A stretch of 59,584 nt of DNA from a bacterium. GTDB taxonomy: Bacteria > Actinomycetota > Acidimicrobiia > Acidimicrobiales > Bin134. Below the pieces are notes generated by a model. That model was not told the DNA's origin. It did not search any database and worked only from the letters and a program-made list of their open reading frames with translations. Each line of letters opens with the position of its first letter. The stretch's first letter is position 1. The stretch covers positions 7,419 to 67,002 of the forward strand of contig JAPOTT010000026.1 of assembly GCA_026709025.1 (NCBI GenBank), in the 5' to 3' direction. Positions 20,978 through 27,891 of this stretch are shown in pieces. Position numbers and translations under genes: made by a program.

Positions 20978-21931
20978 GTGCAGCCTCAGCCTCCCAAAAA
21001 CTCCCCACCCAAAAACTCCACAGAAGATTCCACAGAAGACTCGAATCCAGAACCACTGTATCGTCCTCAGGCATATCAACAGCGCGGCCGCGTGGCCCCT
21101 ATAGATGGCATTCTGCGGGTTAGCGCACCGCGTGAGTGGCTGGTTCTGATCATCTTGGCATTGGTTGTTGCAGGTGTGATCGTCTGGAGCGTGCTAGGCC
21201 GCTTGGAGTCGGGCATAAACGCTGCCTGCACGCTACAAGCCGCAGGCGAACGTTACGTAGTAGCTGCCCCAGCTTCAGGTGTGGTCACCGAGGTTTTGTT
21301 TGAGTCCGGCGAGCAGGTGAGCGCTGGCGACCCACTGGTGCGTATAGCAGCACCCGAAATCAGCTTGGCCGCAGAGGTAGCCGATGCGCGCGCTGCGGCA
21401 GTGGCCGCACAGCATCCAGATAGCCCGGAAGCTGCTGGTGCGGCCGCCGAGGCGGAGGTGCTGCGAGCAGCCGAAGCAGCAGGAACGCTGGTGTTGAGCC
21501 CGGCCGATGGCATAGTGGCACCGCTGATTGTGTCGCCTGGCACCGCAGTAAACCCAGGCTCAGCAGTGGCCGAGGTGCTGGGATTTGGCTCTGGACCACC
21601 AACGTTATCCCTTGCGGTTGCATCAGCAGATGTGATGCGCATCGCTCCTTTCATGGAGGTAAGCGTGGTGGTCACCCCTGCAGGCACAACAAAATCAATC
21701 CACACCGAGGCCCGCTTGAGCGAGTCAAGCCCCAGACAGGCCCCACAAATACAGGCCCCACAAGTACCACCAAACTCTGGTACGCCTCGCGCTCTGCTGG
21801 AGGCCGAACTCGAAGGTCCGCCGACAGCGTTCGAAACGTTGGCACGCCAAACCGAGACAACCTATGGCTGTGAAGCGCGCATCATCACCGAATCCCGGCG
21901 CCCAATTCAGATGCTTATCGGTCGTAGCTGA
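20978..21931 (+). CDS. NHLM-type secretion adaptor (HlyD/membrane fusion family)
   Basis: About 317 residues from GTG 20978; ATG 20906 or 20840 are possible and no start has a good ribosome-binding site, so the start is uncertain. A disordered N-terminus with duplicated PPKNS and STEDS leads to RPQAYQQRGRVAPIDGILRV, then one membrane helix (WLVLIILALVVAGVIVWSVL). A periplasmic hairpin/lipoyl-like part follows: APASGVVTEVLFESGEQV, then LVLSPADGIVAPLIVSPGTA. This is the layout of NHLM bacteriocin-system secretion proteins. It would link the two ABC proteins encoded just downstream, 14 bases away. Unusually short coiled hairpin, as expected for a Gram-positive envelope. Confidence 0.75.
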   Translation: MQPQPPKNSPPKNSTEDSTEDSNPEPLYRPQAYQQRGRVAPIDGILRVSAPREWLVLIILALVVAGVIVWSVLGRLESGINAACTLQAAGERYVVAAPASGVVTEVLFESGEQVSAGDPLVRIAAPEISLAAEVADARAAAVAAQHPDSPEAAGAAAEAEVLRAAEAAGTLVLSPADGIVAPLIVSPGTAVNPGSAVAEVLGFGSGPPTLSLAVASADVMRIAPFMEVSVVVTPAGTTKSIHTEARLSESSPRQAPQIQAPQVPPNSGTPRALLEAELEGPPTAFETLARQTETTYGCEARIITESRRPIQMLIGRS

Positions 21932-21945
21932 GGAACCAGCCAACA

Positions 21946-24156
21946 ATGCGCCTAAGCCCAGGGTTGCGCCGTCACCGCACCCCCGTCATCCCACAGATGC
22001 ACTCCACCGAATGTGGTGCCGCATGCTTAGGCATTCTCCTCGCGCACCACGGAAAACACGTCTCTACCGAAGAGTTACGAGTGGCATGTCGGGTAAGCAG
22101 AGACGGCTCAAGCGCCTCAGATATCGTGGCTGCTGCTAGGTCTTACGGGCTATCACTTACCGGCTGGCGAATGGATACCGATGCTCTGGCAGAACTAGAC
22201 AGCCCGGCTATCTTGTTCTGGGAGTTCAACCACTTCGTTGTGCTAGAGCAAATCCGGGGCGGACGCTACTACCTAAACGATCCAGCTAACGGCAGACGCT
22301 CGGTAAGCGCGCAAACCATAGACCGTGCGTTCACCGGCGTGGTTTTACGCGCCGAGCGCAACGATTCATTCATACCTACCGGCCACCCGCCAGGAATCTT
22401 GCGTAAGCTGTGGCCCTGGCTAGCGCCAGCAAAGGGGGCTCTGGCATTTTCGGTGCTGGCCGGTTTGCTAGCTGCAGTGCCAGTAGCTGCGCTGCCAGTG
22501 CTGCTGGGCTTGTTCGTAGACAGAGTATTGGGCGGATCAGCACCAGGATGGGGAGCGCCTCTGGTATGGGCACTAGCCATCTCGGGCATGGTGATGTATT
22601 TGCTGGTTTGGCTGCAGCAGTACATGTTCCGCAAGATGGCCGTGCGATTGTCGGTGAGCGGTGCCCAAGGTTTCCTCGGGCGCCTGTTCCGACTGCCACC
22701 ACAGTTCTTCGAACATAGGTTCGCTGGCGATCTCACCTCGCGCGTGCATCTAGTAGATGCTGTAGCGGTTGGTGCTTCTACTGGAGCGGCATGGTTGGTG
22801 ATAGAGCTTTTCGCCAGCTTTGTGCTGCTAGGGGTGATGTTGGCGTTCGATCCCCTGCTTGGCGCACTAATCGGGGCAGCGGCGGCAGCCAACATTGGGC
22901 TCATGGCGATGCTCAGCCGCATGCGTGCCGACACCGAACGACAGTTCCGTCACGAACAAGCCACAATGCTGGGCATCGAAGCCGCTGGATTGCGCGACAT
23001 GGAGACAATTCGCGCTACTGCCAGCGAAGATGATTTCTTTGTGCGCTGGAGCGGCCAACAGGCTCGCGAGATCGCGGCACGCCAAAAGTTCGCCGCAACT
23101 GGCTACGTTATCAACGCCCTTCCGCAGCTGTTTGCGATGATCGGGGCAATCATCGTGCTCGGCGTTGGAGGGTGGAAGGTTACACAGGCCGAATTGAGCG
23201 CTGGTGAGCTAATCGCCTTCTACACCCTTGCTGGAGCCTTTTTGGTGCCGGTAGGAAGGTTTGTGCAGTTCGCCGACTCGTTTATGGTTCTAGATGCCGA
23301 TTTACAGCGAGTACAAGACGTGCTCACCGCACCAGAAGACCCCCAAGCAGCTCCTGAAATACCAGAAACTGACCGCCAGAACAGCTCAAACAGCTTTTCG
23401 CCTCAGGTAGCTACCTTTGCTGGCAGGCTACGGCTAGCGGGAAGCTTAGAGTTGCGTGATGTAACGTTCGGTTTCAACAAAGACCGCCCTCCGCTCATCT
23501 GTGGGCTCAGCATCACCATTGAAGCAGGACAGCGGGTAGCTTTTGTTGGCCTCACTGGATCGGGCAAGTCCACCCTTTTGCGGCTCATCAGCGGCGAGCT
23601 AGCACCTGATAGCGGCATGATCTGCTTCGACGGCGCGCCCCGCGCCGATATCCCTCCAGAGGTGTTCGCCAACTCCTTATCATCAGTAGACCAGCAGATC
23701 CATCTGTTTGCTGCCTCGGTGCGCGACAACCTCACAATGTGGAACGCGACGGTGCCAGACGAACAGCTAATCCAAGCTGCCAGAGATGCTTGCATTCACA
23801 ACGAGATCATGGCTCGCCCCGGCGGGTACGACTCAATGGTGGCCGAGGGGGGTCGAAACTTTAGCGGCGGCCAAAGACAGCGGCTTGAGATTGCGCGAGC
23901 GCTCACCAAAAACCCATCCATTTTGCTGGCCGATGAAGCCACCAGCACCTTAGACGCTGTTACCGAGCTTGAAATAGACGACGAGCTCCGCCGGCGCGGT
24001 CTGACCTTGATTATCGTGGCCCACCGACTCACAACAATACGAGACTGCGACGAAATCGTTGTGCTTAATCGTGGCCGAGCAACCCAGCAGGGCACCCACG
24101 AAGAACTACTTGAAGACCACAACGGGCTCTACCGTCAGCTTGTGGAGGCACAGTGA
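21946..24156 (+). CDS. NHLM-type peptidase/ABC exporter (C39 peptidase + TM + ATPase)
   Basis: 736 residues in three parts. The N-terminal C39 peptidase (1-150) has the Cys in HSTECGAACLGILLAHHGK, the His in FNHFVVLEQ and the Asp in YYLNDPANG, so the catalytic triad is complete. It should cut leaders after Gly-Gly. A six-helix transmembrane domain follows, then the ATPase with GLTGSGKSTLLRLISG, FSGGQRQRLEIARAL and ILLADEATSTLD. It removes the leader and exports the peptide. GAGG lies before the ATG. The 3' end overlaps the next gene by 4 bases (GTGA). Substrates are probably the peptides at 27394 and 27615. Confidence 0.9.
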   Translation: MRLSPGLRRHRTPVIPQMHSTECGAACLGILLAHHGKHVSTEELRVACRVSRDGSSASDIVAAARSYGLSLTGWRMDTDALAELDSPAILFWEFNHFVVLEQIRGGRYYLNDPANGRRSVSAQTIDRAFTGVVLRAERNDSFIPTGHPPGILRKLWPWLAPAKGALAFSVLAGLLAAVPVAALPVLLGLFVDRVLGGSAPGWGAPLVWALAISGMVMYLLVWLQQYMFRKMAVRLSVSGAQGFLGRLFRLPPQFFEHRFAGDLTSRVHLVDAVAVGASTGAAWLVIELFASFVLLGVMLAFDPLLGALIGAAAAANIGLMAMLSRMRADTERQFRHEQATMLGIEAAGLRDMETIRATASEDDFFVRWSGQQAREIAARQKFAATGYVINALPQLFAMIGAIIVLGVGGWKVTQAELSAGELIAFYTLAGAFLVPVGRFVQFADSFMVLDADLQRVQDVLTAPEDPQAAPEIPETDRQNSSNSFSPQVATFAGRLRLAGSLELRDVTFGFNKDRPPLICGLSITIEAGQRVAFVGLTGSGKSTLLRLISGELAPDSGMICFDGAPRADIPPEVFANSLSSVDQQIHLFAASVRDNLTMWNATVPDEQLIQAARDACIHNEIMARPGGYDSMVAEGGRNFSGGQRQRLEIARALTKNPSILLADEATSTLDAVTELEIDDELRRRGLTLIIVAHRLTTIRDCDEIVVLNRGRATQQGTHEELLEDHNGLYRQLVEAQ

Positions 24157-27100
24157 CCAAAGTGATCGAAATGACCGACACTGCGCTCGCCAACTTCGCC
24201 GCCGCTCACGGCGAGCTGGTTCGTTCCGCCGCCAACACGCCTATGTTGCTACACGATGCCACAAGCGTTTGGTTTGTGGCCCAGGGAGCGCTGGATATCT
24301 TCTGTGCAGAACACCGCGAGGGCGCAGGTGGAACAACCCAAGTACCAGCAGCAGCTGCCAAGCATCTGCTACGAGCGGAGGTGGGTCAACTGGTTTTCGG
24401 CCTCCCAAATCTAGATGGCCCGCTCACGGTTATGGGCAAGGGCCTAGCCGACACCGTGCTGCTCCGATTGGATGCAGCCGCTCTGGGCATTACCGACGGT
24501 CACGACCCAGCTAGCAACCCAGATCTGCAAGCTGAAGCTGCCCAACAAGCAACAGCATGGGTGAGCGAGATCGCCCGCGCCGTTTCCACAGACATCGAGC
24601 TCCATCCACGCATCTCTACTCTCATTAGCAGCGATTCTGGTATTAACAGCGATTCTGGCATTAGCAGCGATTCTGGCATGCAGGAACTCACTGTGTACCA
24701 AGACAACGTTCTTGGAGTCCGCCAATCTGAGGTGGTGTGGATCTCGGCTACAGCAGACGAGAATGCTGGCGCGCTTTTGTATTTCGGCACCGAGCCACTA
24801 CAGCATCTTGTGCCCAACGCCCCTTGTTGGGTGCCGCTCACGCAGCACAGCTGGGTTACGGTAACCAACCCCGGCTATCGCGCCGAATATCTGAGCCCGC
24901 CACCACAGATCACCGGTAACCCGACAGGCACAACCCAAACAGGCACAGGGAAATCTTCGGGGCTTCGTATTGTTGCCACAGCGCAAATCGAACACGGTGA
25001 ACTGCTAGGTGCGCTAGCTAACTTTCACCGTGTTGCGTTCGGTGCCGAAGCCCTCAACCGAAGGCTTTTGCTTGCAGATGAAGTAAACGCCCAAACCGCG
25101 CTCTCAACTCACCGAAGGCTGGCCCGAGAGCGCACCCAAACGCTGCTCAGGTCGTTAGGGGGCGGAGCTGATAAAAATGTGGTAGTACACGGATCGGCGC
25201 TACTCGCGGTGCTAGAACAGATTGGCCGCCACAGCGGCACCCAGTTTCGCGAACCGCGCTTACCGGTAACGGCACCGCCCGCCACACTGGAACAAGTGCT
25301 CGAAGCTTCAGGTCTGCGGGCGAGGCAGGTACGCCTTACCTCAGAAGACCGATGGTGGCGCACTGATAGCGGTGCCATGCTGGCATATCACCGCGACAGC
25401 AAAGAACCCGTTGCTCTGCTGCCGTCGCTGCGCGGCTATCGGGCCGTAGGTGCCGACGGCAGCACAGAACGCGTGAGCGCATCGTCCGCAGCCGCTTACT
25501 TAGATAGCGCCTGGACAATTTACCCGAAGCTGGCCGACAACCGCCCCGCTAAAGCGCGTGACCTGCTTCGACTGTCGCGCCACGGCACCATAGCAGACCT
25601 CACACGCTTCATAGTCGCAGGTTTGGTTACAGCGCTGTTTACCCAAGCCCCTGCCATTGCCTTGGGCATGCTGGCCGACTGGGCCCTGCCCTTCAACCGA
25701 GGCGGTGCGCTAGCTCAGATACTCGTGGCACTGGCCGTGGTAGCTATTGCTGCTACAGCACTAACCGTGTTCGGGGGCATGGCACTGCTCCGCCTAGAGG
25801 CGCGCGTAGGAGCACGTCTCAGTGCTGCGGCATGGGATCGCCTGCTGGCTTTGCCGCTGCCGTTCTTTAGAAACACCATAGCTGGCGAGTTGGCCGTGCG
25901 CATGAGCACGTTTCAGCGATTACGCGACCTAATTTCAGGAGTGGTTGCCAACGTTCTGGCATCGATGATCTTTCTTTTGCCCACGCTCGGAGTGCTGTTC
26001 TTCTACGATCCTGTGCTGGCAGCCGTGGCGGTGCTGATGTCGGCGGTAGCGCTCGTGGTCATCGTCGGCTTTGGACTGGCCCAAATCCCCCATCAGCGTT
26101 TCTGGCACACTGCGGTACGCACGCTTTCAGGGCGCTTGTTGCAGTTCATCGGCGGCATAACCAGAATTCGTGCCTCGGGCGCTGAAACGGCCGCGTTCGC
26201 ATCATGGGCTGGTGCTTACCGCGACAAGCAGGTTGCAGAAATACGCAGTTCCCGAATAGACGAACACTTGGCCGCCTTCGGAGCGGCCTATCCGTTTGCG
26301 TTCGCTGCGGTGCTATGCGCTGCGGTGATCAGCCGGGGCGATGCCGTATCCGTGAGCGACTTCGCCGTGTCACTCACCGCCTCGCTCGTGTTGTACGCAT
26401 CCGTTGCCGATTTAGGTCGGGCCACCGATGCGCTGGCCGAAGCGTTTACCGCTTATGAGCAGATTACGCCGGTGCTCGAAGCGGTGCCCGAACGCGACAC
26501 CGCTGTTTCAACTACACCGACGGTGCTTGAGGGAGAGCTGTCGGCAGAACAGATCAGCTTCCGTTATAACCCAGAGGGCCCACCGGTGCTCGAAAATGTG
26601 ACCATCTCTGCCCATCCGGGAGAGTTCGTCGCCATTGTGGGCGGCTCAGGCGCTGGCAAGAGCACGCTGATGCGGCTGATGCTGGGCCTTGAGACCCCCC
26701 AGCGGGGAGCAATGTTCTTCGACGGTCGTGATCTGCGGAACCTAGATCAGCGGTCGGTGCGCCGTCAGATCGGGGTTGTGCCTCAGAACAGCTCCCTTCA
26801 ACCGGGAAGTTTGGCTGAGAACATCATCGGCATGGCCGACGACCTGACGCTGGAGGATGCTTGGGTGGCGGCGCGTCTCGCAGCCGTAGACAGCGATATT
26901 GCCGAGATGCCGATGCAGATGATGACGATGGTGGCCGACCGATCCGGTGTCTTCTCGGGCGGGCAGATACAGCGAATACGCATCGCCTCGGCGTTGGTAC
27001 GCGAGCCGCGCATCCTCATTCTAGATGAGGCCACGAGCTGGCTAGATGCCCGCAGCCAGGCCGAGGTAATGGGCAGCATCGAGGGTTTGGGGGCTACCCG

Positions 27101-27251
27101 CATCGTGATTGCGCATCGGCTCTCCACCATCAAAAAAGCAGACCGCATCTATGTGCTCGATGCCGGGCAGGTGGCCCAGGTTGGCAGCTATGAAGAGTTG
27201 CTAGATACTCCGGGGAAGTTCCGCGACCTGATAAGCCGCCAAATCCTCTAA
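24153..27251 (+). CDS. NHLM-type second ABC exporter subunit (long N-terminal domain + TM + ATPase)
   Basis: 1032 residues, starting with GTG in a GTGA overlap. The first ~470 residues form the large cytoplasmic domain typical of NHLM-system ATP-binding proteins. It contains three 18-base repeats coding SDSGI (24624-24677). A six-helix domain follows (about 490-760), then an ATPase with VGGSGAGKSTLMRLMLG, FSGGQIQRIRIASALV and ILILDEATSWLD. There is no C39 triad, so it should form a heterodimer with the peptidase-ABC upstream. Codon use is even through all domains. Confidence 0.88.
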   Translation: MTKVIEMTDTALANFAAAHGELVRSAANTPMLLHDATSVWFVAQGALDIFCAEHREGAGGTTQVPAAAAKHLLRAEVGQLVFGLPNLDGPLTVMGKGLADTVLLRLDAAALGITDGHDPASNPDLQAEAAQQATAWVSEIARAVSTDIELHPRISTLISSDSGINSDSGISSDSGMQELTVYQDNVLGVRQSEVVWISATADENAGALLYFGTEPLQHLVPNAPCWVPLTQHSWVTVTNPGYRAEYLSPPPQITGNPTGTTQTGTGKSSGLRIVATAQIEHGELLGALANFHRVAFGAEALNRRLLLADEVNAQTALSTHRRLARERTQTLLRSLGGGADKNVVVHGSALLAVLEQIGRHSGTQFREPRLPVTAPPATLEQVLEASGLRARQVRLTSEDRWWRTDSGAMLAYHRDSKEPVALLPSLRGYRAVGADGSTERVSASSAAAYLDSAWTIYPKLADNRPAKARDLLRLSRHGTIADLTRFIVAGLVTALFTQAPAIALGMLADWALPFNRGGALAQILVALAVVAIAATALTVFGGMALLRLEARVGARLSAAAWDRLLALPLPFFRNTIAGELAVRMSTFQRLRDLISGVVANVLASMIFLLPTLGVLFFYDPVLAAVAVLMSAVALVVIVGFGLAQIPHQRFWHTAVRTLSGRLLQFIGGITRIRASGAETAAFASWAGAYRDKQVAEIRSSRIDEHLAAFGAAYPFAFAAVLCAAVISRGDAVSVSDFAVSLTASLVLYASVADLGRATDALAEAFTAYEQITPVLEAVPERDTAVSTTPTVLEGELSAEQISFRYNPEGPPVLENVTISAHPGEFVAIVGGSGAGKSTLMRLMLGLETPQRGAMFFDGRDLRNLDQRSVRRQIGVVPQNSSLQPGSLAENIIGMADDLTLEDAWVAARLAAVDSDIAEMPMQMMTMVADRSGVFSGGQIQRIRIASALVREPRILILDEATSWLDARSQAEVMGSIEGLGATRIVIAHRLSTIKKADRIYVLDAGQVAQVGSYEELLDTPGKFRDLISRQIL

Positions 27252-27279
27252 GCAATTAGCCCTGAATGGCACGGGTTGC

Positions 27280-27306
27280 TTGACATGACCGTTTCCAAGC
27301 TAGTAA
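27280..27306 (+). promoter_or_regulatory. promoter of the precursor-peptide genes
   Basis: A perfect TTGACA (27280-27285) is followed by TAGTAA (27301-27306) with a 15-base spacer, or by GTAACA with 17. It lies in the 142-base gap after the ABC gene and would let the two peptides be expressed at a higher level than the exporter. Confidence 0.45.
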
Positions 27307-27393
27307 CATCCCACGCAATAACAACCAAAGATTTGCTTGAGTGAGGGTATCCAGTGAAGTGTATCCTGTCAGCAGTCAAAAAAGGAGAAAAAA

Positions 27394-27594
27394 ATGAGTG
27401 CTAAAAACGAAAAAGTACAAGCCCCTAACCCTCAAGCAACCGAAAAGAAGTTGACTGAGTCGGAGTTAGAAGAGGTGCGTGGCGGAGCAGGTCGTAGTAA
27501 CCCTGGCGGTCATTCTTCGGGCTACACAGGGTACGCTTCTGGTACCACCTCGAATTATCCCTCCGATGTCAATAGTTCAAAACAAAATCCTTAA
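27394..27594 (+). CDS. GG-leader secreted peptide precursor 1 (66 aa)
   Basis: 66 residues behind a strong AAAAAAGGAGAAAAAA ribosome-binding site. The leader KKLTESELEEVRGG has the ELxxVxGG pattern, with Gly30-Gly31 as the cleavage site for the C39 peptidase at 21946. The 35-residue core is rich in Gly, Ser, Asn and Tyr (GRSNPGGHSSGYTGYASG and further), has no cysteine and little charge. No lanthipeptide, radical-SAM, YcaO or other modifying gene lies in the cluster, so the peptide is probably exported unmodified or altered by enzymes elsewhere. Bacteriocin, adhesive or signalling roles are all possible; I cannot choose among them. Confidence 0.75.
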   Translation: MSAKNEKVQAPNPQATEKKLTESELEEVRGGAGRSNPGGHSSGYTGYASGTTSNYPSDVNSSKQNP

Positions 27595-27614
27595 ATATCC
27601 AAAGGAGAAAAGTT

Positions 27615-27830
27615 ATGAGCACCAAAAAAGAACATGCACAATCCCCCTCAGTAACCGAACGAGAGCTTGACGAATCAGAACTTGACAAGATTCGCGGCGG
27701 ATATGATGGGCAAGCCCATGTAAACGCATCTCAGCAATCCTTCGCCCACAATTGGAATAACGGTGGCTCAGCCGCCGCTTACGGGATGTCCAGTAACGCT
27801 GGCAACAAAGGGAAAAAGTCGGCTTCTTGA
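27615..27830 (+). CDS. GG-leader secreted peptide precursor 2 (71 aa)
   Basis: 71 residues with an AAAGGAGAAAAG ribosome-binding site, 20 bases after precursor 1. Leader TERELDESELDKIRGG is nearly the same as in precursor 1; cleavage is expected after Gly29. The 42-residue core (YDGQAHVNASQQSFAHNWNN and on) is rich in Asn, Ser, Ala and Gly, ends in a Lys-rich tail and has no Cys. The leaders agree more than the cores, as expected for one exporter with diverging cargo. A perfect terminator follows. Confidence 0.78.
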   Translation: MSTKKEHAQSPSVTERELDESELDKIRGGYDGQAHVNASQQSFAHNWNNGGSAAAYGMSSNAGNKGKKSAS

Positions 27831-27860
27831 AGCTAACAACAAAATAACCTGATACTAAAA

Positions 27861-27891
27861 GAGCGGCTCACTTGCGTGAGCCGCTCTTTTT
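27861..27891 (+). terminator. rho-independent terminator of the export/peptide operon
   Basis: GAGCGGCTCAC (27861-27871), loop TTGC, GTGAGCCGCTC (27876-27886), then five T. The 11-pair stem is perfect and A residues precede it, so it may work in both directions and also end the convergent proX transcript. Confidence 0.95.

What the first reader, a model, noticed from the sequence alone, without database searches (positions are those of the whole stretch)
20978..27891. NHLM-type export locus with Cys-free cargo and no maturation enzyme
A complete adaptor, C39 peptidase-ABC and second ABC lie directly before two tandem GG-leader peptides, a promoter and a perfect terminator. NHLM systems are normally paired with RiPP-modifying enzymes. 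None is present here, and both cores lack cysteine and are rich in Gly/Ser/Asn. This points to export of unmodified, Asn/Gly/Ser-rich peptides, a type of cargo I do not recognise.
Basis: partly seen in the sequence, partly recalled or inferred. Interest (0 to 1): 0.72.

Follow-up and report, generated by a model that had tools for sequence, protein, structure and literature searches.

The report
Enzyme-free exporter of asparagine-rich peptides
A marine actinobacterium, and about twenty relatives (several of them sponge symbionts), carry a dedicated cut-and-export machine next to genes for small, cysteine-free, asparagine/serine/glycine-rich peptides with no recognised modifying enzyme, so the cells probably secrete plain, unfolded peptides of unknown purpose.

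Summary
Window 20978-27890 is a three-gene exporter (HlyD-like adaptor, C39 peptidase-ABC, second ABC) followed by a promoter, two strong-SD genes with 29-31 aa Gly-Gly leaders and Cys-free cores, and a 15-bp perfect terminator. The 95.7%-complete genome has no YcaO, LanC-like or SPASM protein and no NHLP-leader precursor; its strong radical-SAM hits are housekeeping. The pattern recurs: in about 20 genomes (Acidimicrobiia, Chloroflexota) NHLM-type exporters sit beside short-leader Cys-free peptides (21 cores, 849 residues, 0 Cys; Asn 4.3x enriched, Leu 5.6x depleted, all hydrophilic). Leader homologues occur in 9/9 exporter genomes tested and 0/6 genomes of the genus without it. The second peptide's core (QSFAHxWNNGGSAxAY) is conserved in four species, one copy being unlinked. 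Best reading: NHLM-type machinery used for unmodified, disordered, hydrophilic peptides, more likely signals or interaction factors than pore-forming bacteriocins (no hydrophobic core, no immunity gene). Caveats: nothing is experimental; ABC1, ABC2 and adaptor fall below NCBIfam cut-offs (ABC1 by 1.7 bits); Chloroflexota relatives carry a methyltransferase nearby; in-trans modification is not excluded. New variant of a known kind.

The parts
20978..21931 (+). HlyD-like membrane-fusion adaptor (about 317 aa from GTG 20978; ORF open from ATG 20840)
   Evidence: PF13437 35 bits; TIGR03794 65.7 bits, below its cut-off of 156.2; N-terminus agrees with homologue L054
21946..24156 (+). Peptidase C39-ABC exporter (ABC1): cleaves the Gly-Gly leader and exports
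   Evidence: PF03412 114 bits, PF00664, PF00005; TIGR03796 851.6 against 853.3; invariant C23, H96, D112; homologous over its length to solved PCAT1-type and ComA exporters
24153..27251 (+). Second ABC transporter subunit without peptidase (ABC2), 1032 aa with about 345 aa N-terminal extension
   Evidence: TIGR03797 662.5 against 709.4; PF00664 and PF00005
27280..27309 (+). Promoter TTGACA-18-TAACAT for the peptide genes
   Evidence: a -35 (at least 5 of 6) plus TANNNT at 18-bp spacing lies upstream of the peptide in 4 of 6 species, null mean 0.033, 0 of 5000 shuffles
27394..27594 (+). pep1 precursor: leader MSAKNEKVQAPNPQATEKKLTESELEEVRGG, core AGRSNPGGHSSGYTGYASGTTSNYPSDVNSSKQNP
   Evidence: weak Bacteriocin_IIc; leader model E=1.2e-13 (member of the training set); unlinked leader homologue in G001:C11
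27615..27830 (+). pep2 precursor: leader MSTKKEHAQSPSVTERELDESELDKIRGG, core YDGQAHVNASQQSFAHNWNNGGSAAAYGMSSNAGNKGKKSAS
   Evidence: orthologues in G001, G011, G099; core dN/dS 0.25 and 0.32 against G001 and G011
27857..27890 (+). Intrinsic terminator, perfect 15-bp stem and TTGC loop
   Evidence: z = -6.6

Best explanation
An NHLM-type exporter is used without any dedicated RiPP enzyme. Two ribosomal precursors are made from their own strong promoter; the amphipathic C-terminal half of each leader (ERELxExELExVRGG) docks into the C39 domain of ABC1, which cuts after Gly-Gly; ABC1, ABC2 and the HlyD-like adaptor then export the 35- and 42-residue cores as linear, unmodified, hydrophilic, disordered peptides rich in Asn, Ser and Gly. 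Outside the cell they most likely act by specific recognition, as a signal or as an interaction factor between symbionts or with a host, not by forming pores. Shown by sequence: gene order, intact catalytic residues, leader motif, promoter and terminator, absence of YcaO, LanC and SPASM from the genome, core composition, core conservation, co-occurrence with the exporter. Inferred: cleavage site, export, lack of modification, extracellular role (the signalling role alone I put near 0.45).
For: No YcaO, LANC_like or SPASM in G000 (controls ring in named genomes); its strong radical-SAM hits are MoaA, MiaB, HpnH, LipA/LipB, CofGH, RimO and TIGR03960. No NHLP leader, while G010 has two beside its exporter. 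pep2-type or leader-homologous Cys-free peptides directly after ABC2 in G011, G021, G055 and L072, and in G001 at a contig end. Other short-leader Cys-free peptides beside related exporters in G003, G007, G013, G079, G182, G286, L075, L076, L077-L081, L087 and L095. 21 cores: 849 aa, 0 Cys (p = 3e-4 at the background rate), Asn 4.3x, Ser 2.1x, Leu 0.18x, every GRAVY negative. Leader model hits 9/9 exporter genomes and 0/6 genomes of the genus without exporter, Fisher p = 2e-4. pep2 core more conserved than its leader in the window-G001 pair, core dN/dS 0.25-0.32; unlinked copy in Aldehydirespirator keeps SQQSFAHNWNNGGSAAAYGM less one position. AF2: short leader helix at 20-26, core without structure (shallow alignment).
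Against: No experiment. Methyltransferase genes recur near the Chloroflexota loci and TauD-type dioxygenases near L058 and L076. The YcaO-linked and NHLP-linked exporters are close kin of this clade, so an unrecognised or unlinked enzyme is possible. The genome is 95.7% complete in 56 contigs. The leader model was trained on most of the peptides it finds.
Confidence: 0.68

Rival explanations
1. The peptides are RiPPs modified in trans, for example by methylation, hydroxylation or epimerisation of Asn, Ser or Tyr by an unlinked or unrecognised enzyme, and are then exported; cores of polytheonamide type would be the analogy.
For: Close exporter relatives have YcaO or NHLP-linked partners; a class I methyltransferase stays beside the Chloroflexota members even when its side changes; TauD lies near L058 and L076.
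Against: No YcaO, LanC or SPASM in the whole genome and only housekeeping radical-SAM enzymes among its strong hits; no enzyme family shared across the enzyme-free Acidimicrobiia loci; leaders are short GG leaders, not the long NHLP/Nif11 leaders of enzyme-linked systems.
Confidence: 0.18
2. They are unmodified narrow-spectrum bacteriocins (class II type), the two tandem peptides acting together on related bacteria.
For: GG leaders, dedicated C39 exporter, tandem pair, weak Bacteriocin_IIc similarity in the leader, patchy presence within the genus.
Against: Cores are hydrophilic (GRAVY -1.27 and -0.98, best 11-residue mean 0.22) with no membrane-inserting segment or disulphide; no immunity gene between ABC2 and the terminator; pep1 is absent from the intergenic region in G011 while pep2 stands alone; the pep2 core is conserved rather than diversifying.
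Confidence: 0.17
3. The exporter serves another cargo and the two small ORFs are its remnants or pseudogenes.
For: In the G011 assembly the pep2 start appears frameshifted; pep1 has a close leader relative only as an unlinked gene in G001.
Against: Strong SD sites, conserved promoter, perfect terminator; purifying selection on pep2; strict co-occurrence of leader and exporter; no other candidate leader in the genome at E <= 0.05.
Confidence: 0.06

Closest known systems
NHLM/NHLP export system (TIGR03794 + TIGR03796 + TIGR03797; Haft, Basu and Mitchell 2010, PMC2887384)
   Same: Same three-gene exporter families; GG cleavage motif
   Different: All three proteins below curated cut-offs (ABC1 by 1.7 bits); leader is a 25-35 aa GG leader, not nitrile-hydratase- or Nif11-derived; no TOMM or lanthionine enzyme; Cys-free N/S/G-rich cores. 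[quoted passage not shown]
Double-glycine peptides exported by PCATs (ComC/ComA, class II bacteriocins, PCAT1)
   Same: Short GG leader, C39 cleavage, unmodified cargo; ABC1 is homologous over its length to PCAT1-type and ComA structures
   Different: Second ABC and HlyD-like adaptor; hydrophilic, Asn-rich cores; no immunity gene or sensor kinase beside it
Cyanobacterial bacteriocin clusters groups I-VII (Wang et al. 2011, PMC3140520)
   Same: C39-ABC, peptidase-less ABC and HlyD; many 'other' GG precursors rich in Gly and Ser
   Different: Those precursors are described as also rich in Cys and Thr and expected to be modified; different phylum
YcaO- and NHLP-linked NHLM loci of the same genus (G004, G007-C28, G010, G020)
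   Same: Sister or nested exporters in the ABC1 tree (G020 not in the tree)
   Different: They carry YcaO or a methyltransferase and a 373-aa unknown protein, and (G010, G020) long NHLP leaders

Membership tests
NHLM/NHLP RiPP export system | Adaptor, C39-ABC and second ABC at curated NCBIfam cut-offs | tested here: not met
   65.7/156.2, 851.6/853.3 and 662.5/709.4 bits: right families and order, all below cut-off
NHLM/NHLP RiPP export system | NHLP (TIGR03793) leader on the cargo | tested here: not met
   0 hits in G000; control G010 has 2. TIGR03798 (Nif11-type) did not appear for pep1 or pep2 in NCBIfam at E up to 1.
NHLM/NHLP RiPP export system | Associated TOMM, lanthionine or radical-SAM maturase | tested here: not met
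   No YcaO, LANC or SPASM in the genome; DUF4135 also gave none but without a positive control
PCAT-exported double-glycine peptide | Short precursor with GG leader next to an intact C39 exporter | tested here: met
PCAT-exported double-glycine peptide | Cleavage after GG by the C39 domain | not testable with these tools
   catalytic residues present
Class II (pore-forming) bacteriocin | Hydrophobic or amphipathic core | tested here: not met
   GRAVY -1.27 and -0.98
Class II (pore-forming) bacteriocin | Adjacent immunity gene | tested here: not met
   Only pep1 and pep2 between ABC2 and the terminator
Lanthipeptide / thiazole-type RiPP | Cys in core and cognate enzyme | tested here: not met
   0 Cys in both cores; no enzyme

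The most novel reading that the evidence does not exclude
An overlooked class of secreted, unmodified, Asn/Ser/Gly/Tyr/Trp-rich disordered peptides, exported by re-purposed NHLM machinery in several lineages that include sponge symbionts (Acidimicrobiia, Chloroflexota), acting as symbiosis or inter-bacterial signals, with at least one conserved pheromone-like core (QSFAHxWNNGGSAxAY).
Probability: 0.3. Interest if true: 0.72.

Novelty: new variant of a known kind. Interest (0 to 1): 0.5.

Why it matters
NHLM-type exporters are normally read as signs of RiPP biosynthesis, so genome mining would either misfile these loci or drop them for lack of an enzyme. A recurrent enzyme-free clade with consistent, unusual cargo gives a short, synthesisable peptide list with which to test what uncultured, partly sponge-associated actinobacteria secrete. 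Because both enzyme-linked and enzyme-free versions occur in one genus, it also offers a natural comparison of how exporters and leaders switch between modified and plain cargo.

Tried and rejected
Pfam, NCBIfam and PHROGs give no confident family for pep1 or pep2. A linked enzyme: clustering all flanking ORFs found none shared by the enzyme-free Acidimicrobiia loci; Abhydrolase_10 lies beside the exporter in window, G001 and G011 but is not seen next to it in L072, G021 or G055, so I treat it as local synteny. The radical-SAM gene near G003's locus is a CofG/CofH-type enzyme. A viral home for pep2: no relative in viral contigs. A wide spread of the pep2 core: only the window's own genome among 395 sampled genomes of the class, so pep2 itself is narrow although the composition class is broad. 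First pep2 hit in G055 (L040:1501-1653) was chance; the real G055 peptide lies on the other strand after ABC2. AlphaFold of pep2 gave only a weak leader helix. The careful ML tree did not finish; the quick tree with SH-aLRT was used. Literature searches for Poriferisodal*, Aldehydirespirator and NHLM with double-glycine found nothing.

Full report
OBSERVATION. The window is G000:C10:7419-67002 of a 2.2-Mb, 95.7%-complete draft genome. Between an iol-type sugar region with an Abhydrolase_10 gene and a glycine-betaine uptake region lie, on the + strand, a HlyD-like adaptor, a C39 peptidase-ABC protein and a second ABC protein, then 142 bp with TTGACA-18-TAACAT, two small genes with strong SD sites and GG leaders, and a perfect 15-bp terminator. 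C39 catalytic residues are intact.

IS THERE AN ENZYME? None in the locus or its neighbours. Genome-wide, YcaO, LANC_like and SPASM models find nothing in G000, although the same YcaO search finds the enzyme in G007 and the other two ring in control genomes. DUF4135 also finds nothing, but without a positive control. Nine radical-SAM domain matches exist; seven genes carrying the strong ones (one has two domains) are MoaA, MiaB, HpnH, LipB-LipA, CofGH, RimO and TIGR03960; one sub-threshold fragment in C45 was not followed. The NHLP leader family is absent, with G010 as positive control.

RECURRENCE. pep2 has orthologues after ABC2 in G011 and at a contig end in G001. Homologous leaders with other Cys-free cores follow ABC2 in G021 (RKSGQDASGEAVVAPSHQGHANATIDVR), G055 (DLSAAHSAKAGASGMTNSNANHSNWNSSTSAGTRSGPE) and Candidatus Aldehydirespirator catecholifindens (L072). 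The genome-contig scan and the order survey (25 of 298 genomes with a match to the C39 model at E <= 1e-30) gave further exporters. Short-leader, Cys-free peptides lie beside them in G003, G007-C22, G013, G079, G182, G286, L075 (= G206), L087 (= G154), L095, L076 and the Chloroflexota loci L077, L078, L080, L081, about 20 genomes in all. MAGs with the jk18x prefix come from Ircinia sponges (PMC9531527); that the other isolate names denote sponge samples is my recollection, not tested.

COMPOSITION. Over 21 cores (849 residues) there is no Cys (expected about 8; p = 3e-4 if residues were independent, which related peptides are not). Asn is 4.3x, Ser 2.1x, Tyr 1.8x, Trp 1.7x enriched and Leu falls to 0.18x; every core is hydrophilic. 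The leader pattern used to find candidates bars Cys only in the leader, not in the core. Cores beside Streptomycetaceae and Methylobacterium exporters are hydrophobic instead.

SELECTION AND LINKAGE. For pep2, core dN/dS is 0.25 (G001) and 0.32 (G011), and in the window-G001 pair the core is more conserved than the leader; between G001 and G011 the core ratio is weaker, 0.66. Aldehydirespirator has a second, unlinked gene with its own promoter-like sequence whose core keeps ASQQSFAHNWNNGGSAAAYGM exactly. G001 has an unlinked gene with a leader like pep1's. A model of the leaders finds precursors in 9/9 genomes with the exporter and 0/6 of the same genus without it (Fisher p = 2e-4), with the caveat that it was trained on most of them. 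A -35 of at least 5/6 with TANNNT at 18 bp lies upstream of the peptide in window, G001, G011 and G021 (null mean 0.033, 0/5000).

TREE. In a quick ML tree the window's ABC1 groups with G001, G011, Aldehydirespirator and G055 (100), then with L058/L067/L075/L095 (99), in an 18-row clade (98) of Acidimicrobiia and Chloroflexota. The YcaO-linked G004 and G007-C28 loci are sister to this clade, and the NHLP-linked G010/L088 pair is nested within it. Enzyme-linked and enzyme-free use have therefore switched.

MECHANISM. C39 cleavage after GG and export by ABC1/ABC2/adaptor are inferred from family knowledge. Absence of a hydrophobic core, an immunity gene and Cys argues against a pore former or lanthipeptide. 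Conservation of one core and its unlinked copy favours specific recognition, hence a signal or interaction factor; this last step is the weakest.

MEMBERSHIP AND NOVELTY. By strict NCBIfam cut-offs none of the three exporter proteins is an NHLM equivalog (ABC1 misses by 1.7 bits), the leaders are not NHLP, and no maturase was found; so it works like an NHLM exporter but is not a full NHLM system. Haft et al. 2010 mention NHLP/N11P in species without identified enzymes (PMC2887384). I found no description of this cargo in the literature that is held here, which is only part of what is published. I rate it a new variant of a known kind.

Noticed in passing
L056:11486-12619, L059:12059-13204, L060:3666-4787, L100:4466-5596, L106:6687-7799, L127:15034-16230, L150:7578-8633 and others: A roughly 370-400 aa protein family recurs beside 11 NHLM-type exporters in several phyla (several with YcaO or with a methyltransferase plus NHLP leader); two members tested have no Pfam match. 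Possible unrecognised RiPP partner protein or maturase.
   Followed up: partly
L077, L078, L080, L081: In Chloroflexota, a class I methyltransferase gene stays near the exporter and its ...GWW(N/T)DPN peptide even where its side relative to the exporter changes.
   Followed up: partly
L113, L116, L145, L149 (Streptomycetaceae): NHLM-type exporters with Cys-free, hydrophobic Gly/Val/Leu-rich GG peptides (leader DFTPQVETREIxDxDLDxxSGG); whether modifying enzymes are near was not checked.
   Followed up: no
L058:15646-16467, L076:10497-11024, L069:15804-16763: TauD-type dioxygenase genes beside NHLM-type exporters; probably chance in genomes I believe rich in TauD, but a hydroxylase role is not excluded.
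   Followed up: no
G020:C183:16708-18867 (L006, L062): ABC1 of an NHLP-linked exporter carries an in-frame TAG stop, perhaps a decaying copy.
   Followed up: no
L055:3467-3652: The G011 pep2 start region looks frameshifted in the poly-A stretch after ATG; assembly error or early decay.
   Followed up: no
window 24628-24680: Short in-frame tandem repeat in ABC2 (SSDSGINSDSGISSDSGM) within its N-terminal extension.
   Followed up: no
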